Part shown: piece after piece, positions 55,881 to 59,077 of the stretch
Layout of the letters: every line of letters begins with the position of its first letter
How positions within the stretch are numbered: the first letter of the stretch is position 1
NCBI RefSeq assembly: GCF_039655865.1
Contig: NZ_JBBYXL010000004.1
Coordinates: forward strand, 124,001 to 188,000
DNA: 64,000 bases
Source: Prosthecobacter sp. SYSU 5D2
GTDB taxonomy: Bacteria > Verrucomicrobiota > Verrucomicrobiia > Verrucomicrobiales > Verrucomicrobiaceae
Direction: 5' to 3'
Program-made: the position numbers and the translations under genes
The notes under the pieces: generated by a model
The model's input: the letters and a program-made list of their open reading frames with translations, nothing else
Told to the model about the DNA's origin: nothing
Databases searched by the model: none

Positions 55881-56855
55881 ATGTCAGTCGAAACCCTCAC
55901 CTATGAGTCGCCCCAGTTTCTTCAAAAACTGATCGGCCACGACCTTGCCGGCTTACGCATCATTGCCGATGCTCTCCATGTTCAAATCACCAGCCGCGAT
56001 GGCTGGGTACGCCTTGAAGGGGAAGAGCCCGCCATCGCAGCCACCAAGGAAGTCTTCGCCCAGCTTGAGCGAGTGCGGCGCCAGGGTGGTGAGGTCACGC
56101 CCACCCTTCTCCGCCTCATCACTGAAAGCGTGCTGACTGAACATGGCGATGCCGACCCTGCAGATGCCATTATGAACCTGCGCCTGCAGGGCTCCTCCAA
56201 AAAGCCTCCGGTCCTCGTCAAGACCCGGGGCCAGATCGCTTATGTACAGGCCATGAGAGAGCATGAAGTCGTCTTTGGCATCGGCCCCGCAGGCACGGGC
56301 AAGACCTATCTTGCCATGGCTCAAGGCCTCCATTTCCTCAGAGAAAAAGCCGTCCAGCGCCTCGTCCTCACCCGCCCTGCTGTGGAGGCTGGGGAGGCCC
56401 TTGGCTTCCTCCCGGGCGACCTCAAGGAGAAAATCTTCCCTTACCTCCGCCCCCTCTACGATGCTCTCTATGACATGATGGACCCGGACGAGGCAGAACG
56501 CATGATCGAGCGCGGGGCCATCGAAATCGCCCCCCTCGCTTACATGCGCGGCCGCACCCTGAAAAATGCCTTCATCATTCTCGATGAAGCCCAGAACACC
56601 ACTACCGAACAGATGCTCATGTTTCTCACCCGCTTGGGAGAAGGTGCCCGCTGCGTCATCACTGGTGACCCGTCCCAGGTGGACCTTCGCCGTCATGTCC
56701 GCTCCGGTCTTCGTGAGGCTGTTGAGGTCCTCCAGGGCGTCGAAGGCGTCAAGTTCGTCAGCTTCCTCTCCAAGGACATTGTGCGTCTGCCAGTCGTCCA
56801 AAGGATCATTGAGGCTTACGACAGACATCGGGAGGCCAAAAATGCTCAAAATTAA
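55881..56855 (+). CDS. phoH: PhoH-family ATPase
   Basis: This is a 324-residue cytoplasmic ATPase of the PhoH/YbeZ type. A short KH-like N-terminal region (about 10-65) is followed by the P-loop GPAGTGKT (residues 135-142), the LTRPAVEAGEALGFLPGDL stretch, the Walker B FIILDEAQN and the sensor VITGDPSQVDL. It is thought to act with the RNase YbeY in ribosome and RNA metabolism. The gene order phoH, HD-hydrolase, ybeY in this window matches the conserved cluster of many bacteria. A 94-base gap with a LexA-type palindrome separates it from the HD gene. Confidence 0.95.
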   Translation: MSVETLTYESPQFLQKLIGHDLAGLRIIADALHVQITSRDGWVRLEGEEPAIAATKEVFAQLERVRRQGGEVTPTLLRLITESVLTEHGDADPADAIMNLRLQGSSKKPPVLVKTRGQIAYVQAMREHEVVFGIGPAGTGKTYLAMAQGLHFLREKAVQRLVLTRPAVEAGEALGFLPGDLKEKIFPYLRPLYDALYDMMDPDEAERMIERGAIEIAPLAYMRGRTLKNAFIILDEAQNTTTEQMLMFLTRLGEGARCVITGDPSQVDLRRHVRSGLREAVEVLQGVEGVKFVSFLSKDIVRLPVVQRIIEAYDRHREAKNAQN

Positions 56856-56857
56856 AC

Positions 56858-56871
56858 TGTTCTTAAGAACA
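56858..56871. promoter_or_regulatory. LexA-type palindrome (SOS box) upstream of the HD-hydrolase gene
   Basis: TGTTCTTAAGAACA is a perfect 14-bp palindrome starting three bases after the phoH stop and ending 78 bases before the next ATG. It is an exact match to TGTTC-N4-GAACA, which I recall as the LexA consensus defined for Verrucomicrobia with the Verrucomicrobium spinosum recA promoter. I saw no second exact match when reading the window for it. A role as terminator is unlikely, because only a five-base stem with a four-base loop and no T-run could form. Confidence 0.65.
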
Positions 56872-56949
56872 CATTTTCTTGCAAAAGCTTGCTTGTCGCA
56901 GTCGTAGTATGTGTTAGGCTCCTTCTAATATTTCTCGAAAAATCTACTC

Positions 56950-58641
56950 ATGTTCGATTCCATTCGCCGGGCAAAACTGCAAAGAGCTGGGCTCTCTTGT
57001 GGTAAAAAGCGCCTGAAGCATCAAGAAGGCGATTTGATGGATGAACTGCGGACCCACCCCGCAGCTACCGTGGCGGTTTATGGGACCTTTTTCATAGCAC
57101 TTGGTCTTCTCATGAAGCTGGGTGCCTCAGTCATCCCTGGTACCGTCACTCCCCAGCCCATTGCCTATCTTTGCATGGCGGCCATCGCCTCAGCCATGGT
57201 CGTCCACCTGCGCGTCGCCTTGCGGGAGGAGGTGGAGGACAATGCCGAGCTCTCGCTCGTTCTTGGCACCCTGCTGCTGCAAATGGGGGCCAATGTCGCC
57301 ATGCTGGATTACGGCAATCAGCAGAGCTGGTCCGGGGCTCTTCTCGTTGTGGCCATGCCACACGCCTTTGCTCCGTTGGTGCTGTCTGTCATTCTCGGGC
57401 GTAAAATGGGCCTGTTCGCCGCCATTTATTCCACTCTCCTGGGTTCCATGGTCTGCGTGGCGGTGAATCCCATCACCTTCCTTGCCAGTTCCTCCCTTAT
57501 TGGGTTCCTGGTCGTGCTGTTCACCAAACGCGTGCGTCGGCGCAACCGCCTCTTCATGGCGGGTCTGTACATCGGTGGCGTCGCCGCTGTTTTTTCCCTT
57601 CTTCTCTATGAGGCCTCCGGCACCGGCTCCGCCAGCGTTTCCCTGGGCCGCATTCTCGCCGTCCCTTTCATCATGGGCATCGTCACCGGCCTCCTTGTCG
57701 GCGGGTTGCTGCCTGTGATTGAGTCGCTTTTCGGCGTCACCACTGAAGTCTCGTGGCTGGAACTTTCCGACCTGAATCACCCCTTGATGAAGCGCCTCAG
57801 CATTGAGGCTCCCGGCACCTACCATCATAGCCTCGTCGTCGCCAACCTCTCCGAGGCTGCCGCCGAATCCATCGGTGCCAATGCCGCCATGACCCGCGTC
57901 TGCGCGTATTTCCACGATATCGGCAAACTGACCAAGCCCGAGTATTTCATCGAGAACATGGATCCTGCGGACAATCCGCACGATGACCTCACCGCGCGCA
58001 TGAGTGCTCTCATCCTCATCGCCCATGTCAAAGACGGCGTGGACCTGGCCATCAAGCACAAGCTCAATGTCAGCATCATTGACGTCATCGAGCAGCACCA
58101 CGGCACCTCCCTCGCCTGGTATTTCTACAAGCGTGCCCTCGACCAGAAGGCCGAAATGATCCGCCTCGTCGAGCAGGGAAAATCCAAGGAGGACGACATT
58201 CCCCAGGTCAGCGAGGGTGTCTTCCGTTACCCTGGCCCCACGCCCCAGTTTAAGGAGGCAGCTATCATCTCCCTCGCGGATGCCGTCGAAAGCGCCTCGC
58301 GTGCCATGGAAAAACCCAATGCCTCCCGCATTGAAGCCCTGGTGGATGAACTCGTCTTTGATCGCATGAAAGATGGCCAGCTGGATGAGTGCGACCTCAC
58401 CATTGCCGACCTCGCCAAGGTCAAAGCCAGCTTCGTCAAGACCCTGCTTAGCATGATGCACAGCCGCATCAAATACCAGAAGGCCTCTGAAACGGCCTCC
58501 ACATCCGTCATCGCCAAGGACTCCACCCCCGCCGCCACTCCTGTTCATGACGGCATGACCCTGGCCATGGACAATCCTTATGCCACCGGCGCAGGCAGTG
58601 AGAAAAAGCGGCCCGCCCGCAAGCCCCCCTCTGCCGCTTAA
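56950..58641 (+). CDS. PgpH/7TMR-HD-like membrane HD phosphohydrolase
   Basis: This 563-residue membrane protein has six to seven hydrophobic helices (about residues 40-260) followed by a cytoplasmic HD domain. The HD motif is YFHDIGK with H322 and D323; TYHHSLVVANLSEAA precedes it and IEQHHGTSLAWYFY follows. C-terminal acidic helices complete the fold. PgpH-type relatives hydrolyse cyclic di-AMP. This form lacks the large extracellular 7TMR-HDED domain of Listeria PgpH, so its ligand and activity may differ. The first ATG (56950) is used; a second ATG (57037) also precedes the first helix. The stop is four bases before ybeY. Confidence 0.88.
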   Translation: MFDSIRRAKLQRAGLSCGKKRLKHQEGDLMDELRTHPAATVAVYGTFFIALGLLMKLGASVIPGTVTPQPIAYLCMAAIASAMVVHLRVALREEVEDNAELSLVLGTLLLQMGANVAMLDYGNQQSWSGALLVVAMPHAFAPLVLSVILGRKMGLFAAIYSTLLGSMVCVAVNPITFLASSSLIGFLVVLFTKRVRRRNRLFMAGLYIGGVAAVFSLLLYEASGTGSASVSLGRILAVPFIMGIVTGLLVGGLLPVIESLFGVTTEVSWLELSDLNHPLMKRLSIEAPGTYHHSLVVANLSEAAAESIGANAAMTRVCAYFHDIGKLTKPEYFIENMDPADNPHDDLTARMSALILIAHVKDGVDLAIKHKLNVSIIDVIEQHHGTSLAWYFYKRALDQKAEMIRLVEQGKSKEDDIPQVSEGVFRYPGPTPQFKEAAIISLADAVESASRAMEKPNASRIEALVDELVFDRMKDGQLDECDLTIADLAKVKASFVKTLLSMMHSRIKYQKASETASTSVIAKDSTPAATPVHDGMTLAMDNPYATGAGSEKKRPARKPPSAA

Positions 58642-58645
58642 AGTA

Positions 58646-59077
58646 ATGGCCAAGCTGTTCCTTTATAACCGTCAGAAGACCCGCCGTCCCGACCTTCCCC
58701 TCCTGCGCCGCCTCGTCAAAGCTGCCCTGCCCCACTGTCTGGCCGCTGCCAAATCCCCTGACGCTCCGCTGCACGAACTGGAGGAGATCGAGTTTACCGT
58801 GGTTTCTGATGATGAAATCGAGGCCGTCCATGCCGAGTTTCTCGATGACCCGACCCCTACCGACGTCATCACCTTCCACCACGGGGAGATCCTTGTCAGT
58901 GCCGATACAGCCCTCCGCCAAGGGGCCGACCACGGCATGCCCTTTGATCACGAGCTCGCCCTGTATATGATTCACGGCCTCATGCACCTTGCCGGCTGGG
59001 ATGACCACGAAGAAACGGAAGCCGCAGAAATGACCCGCCTCCAGGAAGCCATCCTGCAAAAAGTGCTGGCTATCTAA
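58646..59077 (+). CDS. ybeY: Endoribonuclease YbeY
   Basis: This 143-residue metal-dependent RNase takes part in 16S rRNA 3'-end maturation and ribosome quality control. The metal site is HGLMHLAGWDDH (H110, H114, H121), slightly longer than the usual 'HGxLHLxGyDH' by one residue. TPTDVITFHHGEILVS precedes it and is typical of the family. The ATG at 58646, four bases after the HD-hydrolase stop, gives the common MAKLFLYNRQ start. The open frame extends into the preceding gene without family sequence. It is the last gene of the phoH-HD-ybeY cluster. Confidence 0.94.
   Translation: MAKLFLYNRQKTRRPDLPLLRRLVKAALPHCLAAAKSPDAPLHELEEIEFTVVSDDEIEAVHAEFLDDPTPTDVITFHHGEILVSADTALRQGADHGMPFDHELALYMIHGLMHLAGWDDHEETEAAEMTRLQEAILQKVLAI

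What the first reader, a model, noticed from the sequence alone, without database searches (positions are those of the whole stretch)
56858..56950. Exact Verrucomicrobia-type LexA box between phoH and the PgpH-like/ybeY pair
TGTTC-TTAA-GAACA is a perfect 14-bp palindrome matching TGTTC-N4-GAACA, which I recall as the LexA consensus defined with the Verrucomicrobium spinosum recA promoter. It splits the conserved phoH-HD-ybeY cluster. If functional, cyclic-dinucleotide-type turnover and rRNA maturation would come under DNA-damage control, a link I do not know from classical SOS regulons.
Basis: partly seen in the sequence, partly recalled or inferred. Interest (0 to 1): 0.7.

Follow-up and report, generated by a model that had tools for sequence, protein, structure and literature searches.

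The report
LexA box before c-di-AMP hydrolase gene
A conserved binding site for LexA, the switch of the bacterial DNA-damage response, lies just upstream of a gene that probably destroys the signal molecule cyclic di-AMP, which suggests that these bacteria connect DNA damage to that second messenger; no experiment has tested it yet.

Summary
The palindrome TGTTC-TTAA-GAACA is at 56858-56871. The genome (Prosthecobacter relatives) has 7 exact TGTTC-N4-GAACA sites against 1 for the reversed control; others precede lexA, recA and a dinB-type gene, so this is very probably its own LexA motif. At the same place before pgpH the box occurs in 15 of 44 same-genus genomes with a readable start region: 7 exact, 7 with one mismatch, 1 with two. 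Arms are conserved (0.89 pairwise identity), spacer and upstream flank near random (0.33, 0.29, genomes chosen for having the box). It ends exactly 20 bp before a conserved promoter-like CTTGT. A genus of another family has it before pgpH too (20 of 22 within two mismatches, 3 exact), with queA where read, not phoH, upstream. One MAG of a third family has an exact box. The protein is PgpH-like; a CdaA-type cyclase is encoded. This is very probably a real LexA operator on pgpH-ybeY. Its position, near -62 by inference, differs from the lexA and recA sites, so repression or activation is open. Binding and induction are untested.

The parts
55881..56855 (+). phoH, upstream neighbour
   Evidence: PF02562, E 2.7e-91
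56858..56871 (.). LexA box TGTTC-TTAA-GAACA (palindrome)
   Evidence: exact match; same pattern before lexA, recA and dinB-type gene in this genome; conserved at this place in 15 of 44 relatives
56883..56886 (+). conserved A run between box and -35-like element
   Evidence: two of its A columns invariant in 15 box-bearing genomes
56892..56897 (+). -35-like element CTTGTC
   Evidence: CTTGT in 15 of 15 box-bearing genomes, box end to CTTGT always 20 bp; CTTGT in 41 of 43 genomes listed; not found by the strict sigma-70 scan
56910..56920 (+). extended -10-like element TGTGTTAGGCT
   Evidence: conservation only
56950..58641 (+). pgpH-like gene, 563 aa, 7TM plus HD phosphodiesterase
   Evidence: PF07698 and PF01966; Lmo1466 HD domain 4s1b, E 8.9e-59
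58646..59077 (+). ybeY, 143 aa, 4 nt after pgpH
   Evidence: PF02130, TIGR00043

Best explanation
The palindrome is a real LexA operator that puts pgpH, and probably ybeY behind it, under SOS control. LexA binds 20 bp upstream of the -35-like element of the pgpH promoter, centred near -62. When RecA filaments form on damaged DNA, LexA cleaves itself and leaves the operator, and pgpH transcription changes, most likely rising by derepression; more PgpH would lower c-di-AMP. Shown by sequence: motif identity, footprint, fixed spacing, recurrence in other lineages, family of the encoded enzyme. Inferred: LexA binding, transcription start, direction of the effect, enzyme activity, effect on c-di-AMP. 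My estimates: LexA binds, about 0.85; LexA affects pgpH expression, about 0.7; repression, about 0.55 given binding.
For: Own-genome motif: 7 exact sites against 1 control, among them lexA, recA and a dinB-type gene; LexA present. Exact box before lexA in 27 of 28 same-genus lexA loci read by script. Box before pgpH in 15 of 44 same-genus genomes; arms 0.89, spacer 0.33, upstream flank 0.29 identity. In seven genomes pgpH has an exact box in 5 and one mismatch in the other 2. Second lineage g12: 20 of 22 within two mismatches, spacing to TTGT 20 in 19 of these 20, different upstream gene. An architecture pattern hits 13 of 33 g12 genomes, control 0; 10 hits are mapped pgpH genes. LJ.3 exact. 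SQTAAxSHLRALE segment of LexA shared by 16 LexA proteins compared, with and without the pgpH box.
Against: No binding or expression data. The box lies upstream of the inferred promoter, unlike lexA and recA. It is missing at this place in 29 of 44 same-genus genomes and not within one mismatch in 26 other upstream regions of the order. The footprint genomes were chosen for having the box. In much of g12 the left arm overlaps the queA end, so coding may explain part of its conservation. The strict promoter scan finds nothing. NCBIfam names the protein only as an HDIG-domain protein.
Confidence: 0.6

Rival explanations
1. LexA is an activator here. Bound near -62 on the polymerase face of the helix, it helps the pgpH promoter in undamaged cells; LexA cleavage then lowers pgpH and raises c-di-AMP.
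For: Box upstream of the -35-like element at a fixed 20 bp in 15 of 15 Prosthecobacter genomes and nearly the same in g12; in LJ.3 the distance to CTTG is 29, close to one helical turn more. LexA proteins have been reported as activators (PMC8565304, passage citing Tapias 2002).
Against: LexA is mostly a repressor; the start site is inferred; the helical-phase argument rests on one MAG.
Confidence: 0.2
2. LexA is a roadblock: it stops transcription that reads through from the upstream gene into pgpH-ybeY, and damage opens the way.
For: The box lies directly behind the stop of a co-directional gene, phoH in the window and queA in the g12 loci read.
Against: A roadblock needs no fixed spacing to the promoter, yet the spacing is kept; conserved promoter-like elements lie downstream of the box.
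Confidence: 0.12
3. Another DNA-binding protein with the same palindrome, not LexA, uses the site.
For: No binding data; G007 and relatives keep LexA without this site.
Against: The pattern equals the sites before lexA, recA and dinB-type genes in 7 of 7 genomes.
Confidence: 0.05
4. It is an RNA hairpin or terminator of the upstream gene.
For: In G002 it lies in a palindrome with 15-bp arms that folds at -25.5 kcal/mol (z -6.9); in LJ.3 in a 30-bp palindrome.
Against: In the window the hairpin is weak (z 0.38) and no terminator-like site is found; all 8 mismatched sites lose at least one pair.
Confidence: 0.02
5. Chance palindrome.
For: Matches with up to one mismatch are expected about 1.5 times in a window of this size.
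Against: Same place in 15 of 44 relatives, and in a second family with another upstream gene.
Confidence: 0.01

Closest known systems
Verrucomicrobia LexA regulon, TGTTC-N4-GAACA (Erill et al. 2016, Front Mol Biosci 3:33; content recalled, paper not held; cited in PMC8565304, passages)
   Same: Same motif; sites before lexA, recA and a polymerase gene.
   Different: Here the box is before a PgpH-type gene and upstream of the inferred -35. Whether that paper lists this gene I could not check. Two Verrucomicrobium sp. genomes (BvORR106, BvORR034) lack the box before pgpH.
PgpH (Lmo1466 of Listeria), c-di-AMP phosphodiesterase
   Same: 7TM plus HD architecture; HD domain match E 8.9e-59.
   Different: No match to the extracellular 7TMR-HDED domain in Pfam (that the Listeria protein has it is recalled); SOS control of PgpH is not known to me.
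c-di-AMP and DNA damage in Mycobacterium and Bacillus (DisA, RecA)
   Same: Connects c-di-AMP to the damage response; in M. smegmatis c-di-AMP inhibits RecA-mediated LexA cleavage and disA is induced by SOS (PMC11653572, passages); DisA activity is suppressed at damage sites (PMC6547438, abstract).
   Different: There the synthase side; here the hydrolase side, through an operator.
Rhodobacter sphaeroides LexA at recA (Tapias 2002; title seen in the reference list of PMC8565304; paper not held)
   Same: Precedent for LexA that is not only a repressor.
   Different: Other LexA motif and promoter; no activation is shown here.

Membership tests
LexA (SOS) regulon | site matches the LexA motif of the same organism | tested here: met
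   exact match; same pattern before lexA, recA, dinB-type gene
LexA (SOS) regulon | LexA and RecA present | tested here: met
   LexA PF01726 and TIGR00498; recA identified by its sequence and by its ORF in the seven genomes, not by a family search
LexA (SOS) regulon | site conserved before orthologues | tested here: met
   15 of 44 same-genus genomes, 20 of 22 g12 genomes within two mismatches, LJ.3; absent in the others read
LexA (SOS) regulon | site overlaps the promoter or lies just after it | tested here: inconclusive
   box is 20 bp upstream of the inferred -35; promoter inferred from conservation only
LexA (SOS) regulon | LexA binds, expression changes on damage | not testable with these tools
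   needs gel shift and RNA data
PgpH c-di-AMP phosphodiesterases | 7TM and HD domains | tested here: met
   PF07698, PF01966; 4s1b E 8.9e-59
PgpH c-di-AMP phosphodiesterases | extracellular 7TMR-HDED domain | tested here: not met
   no Pfam match at E 0.001; so I call it PgpH-like
PgpH c-di-AMP phosphodiesterases | c-di-AMP made in the cell | tested here: met
   one DAC-domain protein with CdaA_N; synthesis itself not tested
PgpH c-di-AMP phosphodiesterases | hydrolysis of c-di-AMP | not testable with these tools
   needs an enzyme assay
Intrinsic terminator | G+C-rich stem followed by a T run | tested here: not met
   none found; hairpin z 0.38

The most novel reading that the evidence does not exclude
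The LexA site at pgpH forms a feedback loop between DNA damage and c-di-AMP in Verrucomicrobiales. LexA cleavage changes PgpH and thereby c-di-AMP, which in turn tunes RecA-driven LexA cleavage, as c-di-AMP does in Mycobacterium. The operator near -62, on the polymerase face, would make LexA an activator or an upstream modulator here and not a steric repressor. The wiring has arisen, or been kept, in at least two families.
Probability: 0.2. Interest if true: 0.82.

Novelty: new variant of a known kind. Interest (0 to 1): 0.6.

Why it matters
A c-di-AMP hydrolase under LexA would tie a second messenger of osmotic and cell-wall control to the SOS switch by transcription. The links I saw in print run through the synthase DisA and through c-di-AMP acting on RecA and LexA cleavage (PMC11653572, passages; PMC6547438, abstract). 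The same box at nearly the same distance from a promoter-like element in two families, with different upstream genes, makes a testable prediction: measure pgpH mRNA and c-di-AMP after mitomycin C. It also offers a natural case of a LexA operator upstream of a -35 region.

Tried and rejected
RNA hairpin or terminator: rejected for the window; a strong hairpin in G002 and a long palindrome in LJ.3 stay unexplained. Chance: rejected by conservation. A second promoter with the box just after its -10, as at lexA: by eye I saw no conserved CTTG-like element at that distance upstream of the box; not tested by computation. Link to phoH: rejected, because the g12 loci read have queA there and three relatives have phoH without the box (L083, L085, L086). 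I first took site L002 for one beside an insertion-sequence remnant; one search shows that the ORF on its other side is shared by 4 genomes.

Papers: searches for LexA with PgpH (10 papers), yqfF (2), 7TMR-HD (0), c-di-AMP and SOS (32, 15 listed), Prosthecobacter (0), c-di-AMP with SOS regulon (0) and a loose search (310, 5 listed) show no report of LexA control of this gene, judged from titles and abstract starts only. The key 2016 paper is not held, so absence from print is not established.

Limits: 187 of 191 order-level genomes have PgpH, but outside Prosthecobacter and g12 I read only 22 upstream regions and 4, plus LJ.3; one search read 19 named loci, some the same genomes (best besides LJ.3: two mismatches). 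demands a start codon context and so misses other start sequences. G105 was dropped (contig end); G021, G024, G038 and G040 have no readable pgpH start. G041 and G033 have a two-mismatch match elsewhere upstream, not counted. The lexA box was not found by script in L178 and L188; by coordinates G008 (L188) has an exact site before lexA. G007 has only a two-mismatch site before lexA. Start codons are mechanical. Five rows were dropped from the tree by my motif filter (L216, L217, L220, L230, L063), so G027 is not in it; the tree is a quick one and warns of long branches, G086 among them.

Full report
What is there. The palindrome TGTTC-TTAA-GAACA lies at 56858-56871, 2 nt after the phoH stop and 78 nt before the ATG of a 563-aa gene. 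Pfam gives PhoH (E 2.7e-91), 7TM-7TMR_HD plus HD for the middle gene, and YbeY. The HD domain matches Listeria Lmo1466 (PgpH; the name is recalled) with E 8.9e-59 over residues 275-509. No match to the extracellular 7TMR-HDED domain was found, and NCBIfam gives only the HDIG domain above its cut-off. The genome encodes one DAC-domain protein, of CdaA type, so c-di-AMP is probably made. Named relatives of the gene are Prosthecobacter and other Verrucomicrobiaceae.

Is it the LexA motif of this genome? The genome holds 7 exact TGTTC-N4-GAACA sites; the reversed control pattern occurs once. Apart from pgpH they lie by lexA (11 nt before its start), recA, a Y-family polymerase gene, a PA0069-family radical SAM gene, a cpYpsA gene and a small membrane-like protein without Pfam match. 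LexA itself is confirmed. In 48 same-genus genomes the pattern occurs 276 times against 35 control matches; in G007 and G016 the control is not lower. An exact box stands before lexA in 27 of 28 same-genus lexA loci that the scripts read, G007 having two mismatches. That the consensus was defined with Verrucomicrobium spinosum recA is recalled; the paper is not held.

Regulon in seven genomes. I took all 71 exact sites of G000-G006 and clustered the flanking ORFs. lexA, recA and the dinB-type gene have an exact box in 7 of 7. pgpH has it in 5 of 7, and with one mismatch in the other two, G001 and G003. A LexA-like S24 peptidase gene also has it in 5 of 7 (G001, G003, G004, G005, G006). The radical SAM gene, the membrane-like protein and a helix-turn-helix protein have it in 4 each. 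So pgpH ranks right after the three core genes, level with the S24 peptidase. Genes on the other side of the lexA and recA sites recur too (6 and 5 genomes), as expected of neighbours.

Footprint before pgpH. PgpH is found in 47 of 48 same-genus genomes; 44 have a readable start region. At one fixed place 7 have the exact box, 7 one mismatch and 1 two mismatches; 29 have none there. All 15 are among the 18 genomes whose PgpH is at least 74% identical to the window's; G037, G045 and G017 of these lack it. Over 14 box-bearing genomes (one near-duplicate dropped) pairwise identity is 0.89 in the arms, 0.33 in the spacer, 0.29 in the 30 nt upstream, 0.46 in the 20 nt downstream and 1.0 in CTTGT. 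These genomes were chosen for the box, so the arm value is inflated; spacer and flank show how far the region has diverged. All 8 mismatched sites lose at least one base pair of the palindrome, which suits a protein site better than a hairpin.

Position. Box end to CTTGT is 20 bp in 15 of 15. CTTGT is kept in 41 of 43 genomes listed, box or no box, mostly followed by a TGnnnTAG-type element (39 of 43 met my spacing rule). I read this as the pgpH promoter, although a strict sigma-70 scan finds none. The box centre is then near -62 (inference). At lexA and recA the box lies about 9 to 21 nt before the likely start codon, so the geometry differs.

Other lineages. An order-level search found PgpH in 187 of 191 genomes. 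In genus g12 of another family 22 upstream regions were readable: 3 exact, 10 with one, 7 with two, 1 with three mismatches, and 1 without (G093). Of the 20 within two mismatches, 19 have TTGT at offset 20 and one at 19; in Prosthecobacter it is at 21. The upstream gene is queA-like in the 3 g12 loci read (PF02547, E 2.3e-80, tested for one of them); phoH was not found in the 7 g12 loci tested and ybeY was found in all 7. In many g12 genomes the left arm overlaps the queA end, so coding constraint contributes; in G137 and G113, where the upstream frame stops just before the box, the box is perfect. A pattern built on this architecture hits 13 of 33 g12 genomes, control 0; 10 hits are at pgpH genes mapped, an eleventh (G129) resembles one by sequence, 2 are elsewhere. 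Ten of 10 genomes tested (9 of g12, plus G086) encode LexA, with an exact box before lexA in 7 and one mismatch in 3. MAG LJ.3 (G086, a third family) has an exact box inside a 30-bp palindrome, 29 bp before CTTG. None of 26 other upstream regions of the order is within one mismatch. The exact architecture occurs in 7 of 48 genus members and 0 of 20 other family members. On a quick PgpH tree of 59 rows the box needs 6 changes, against a mean of 18 for shuffled labels: clustered, in separate lineages, gained more than once or lost often.

How it may work. LexA binding is very likely on motif grounds. The usual outcome would be derepression of pgpH-ybeY after damage. The upstream position and fixed spacing leave activation or a roadblock open. 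In Mycobacterium smegmatis c-di-AMP inhibits RecA-mediated LexA cleavage (PMC11653572, passages); if this held here, SOS-driven PgpH would feed back on the switch. This last step is speculation.

Verdict. The physiological claim is untested. I file it as a new variant within a known kind, the SOS regulon.

Noticed in passing
L034, L035, L037, L038, just upstream of pgpH: Prosthecobacter genomes without the LexA box carry an inverted repeat of the TGAGCC-N5-GGCTCA type (imperfect in L038 and L035) near the phoH end, at about the same place.
   Followed up: no
L014:1390-1450 (G002) and L096, upstream of pgpH: In these two genomes the LexA box is the centre of a much longer palindrome (15-bp arms in G002; 30 bp in LJ.3); reason unknown.
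   Followed up: partly
L002:921-1421 (-), box at L002:1501-1514: A small membrane-like protein without Pfam match has a LexA box far upstream and a conserved AT-rich leader with a TTGGCA-16-TATTAT-like promoter in 4 genomes: a second case of a box upstream of a promoter.
   Followed up: partly
L118, L138, L144, L161: A helix-turn-helix protein that looks RodZ-like to me (not searched) has an exact box upstream in G001, G002, G005 and G006.
   Followed up: no
L114, L127, L150, L151, L158, L167: LexA-like S24 peptidase genes, UmuD-like by my reading, have an exact box upstream in 5 of 7 genomes, two copies in G005.
   Followed up: no
L272-L279 and L281, lexA promoters of genus g12: The LexA box is followed directly by a further TGTTC half-site, like the tandem sites that I recall from the 2016 paper.
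   Followed up: no
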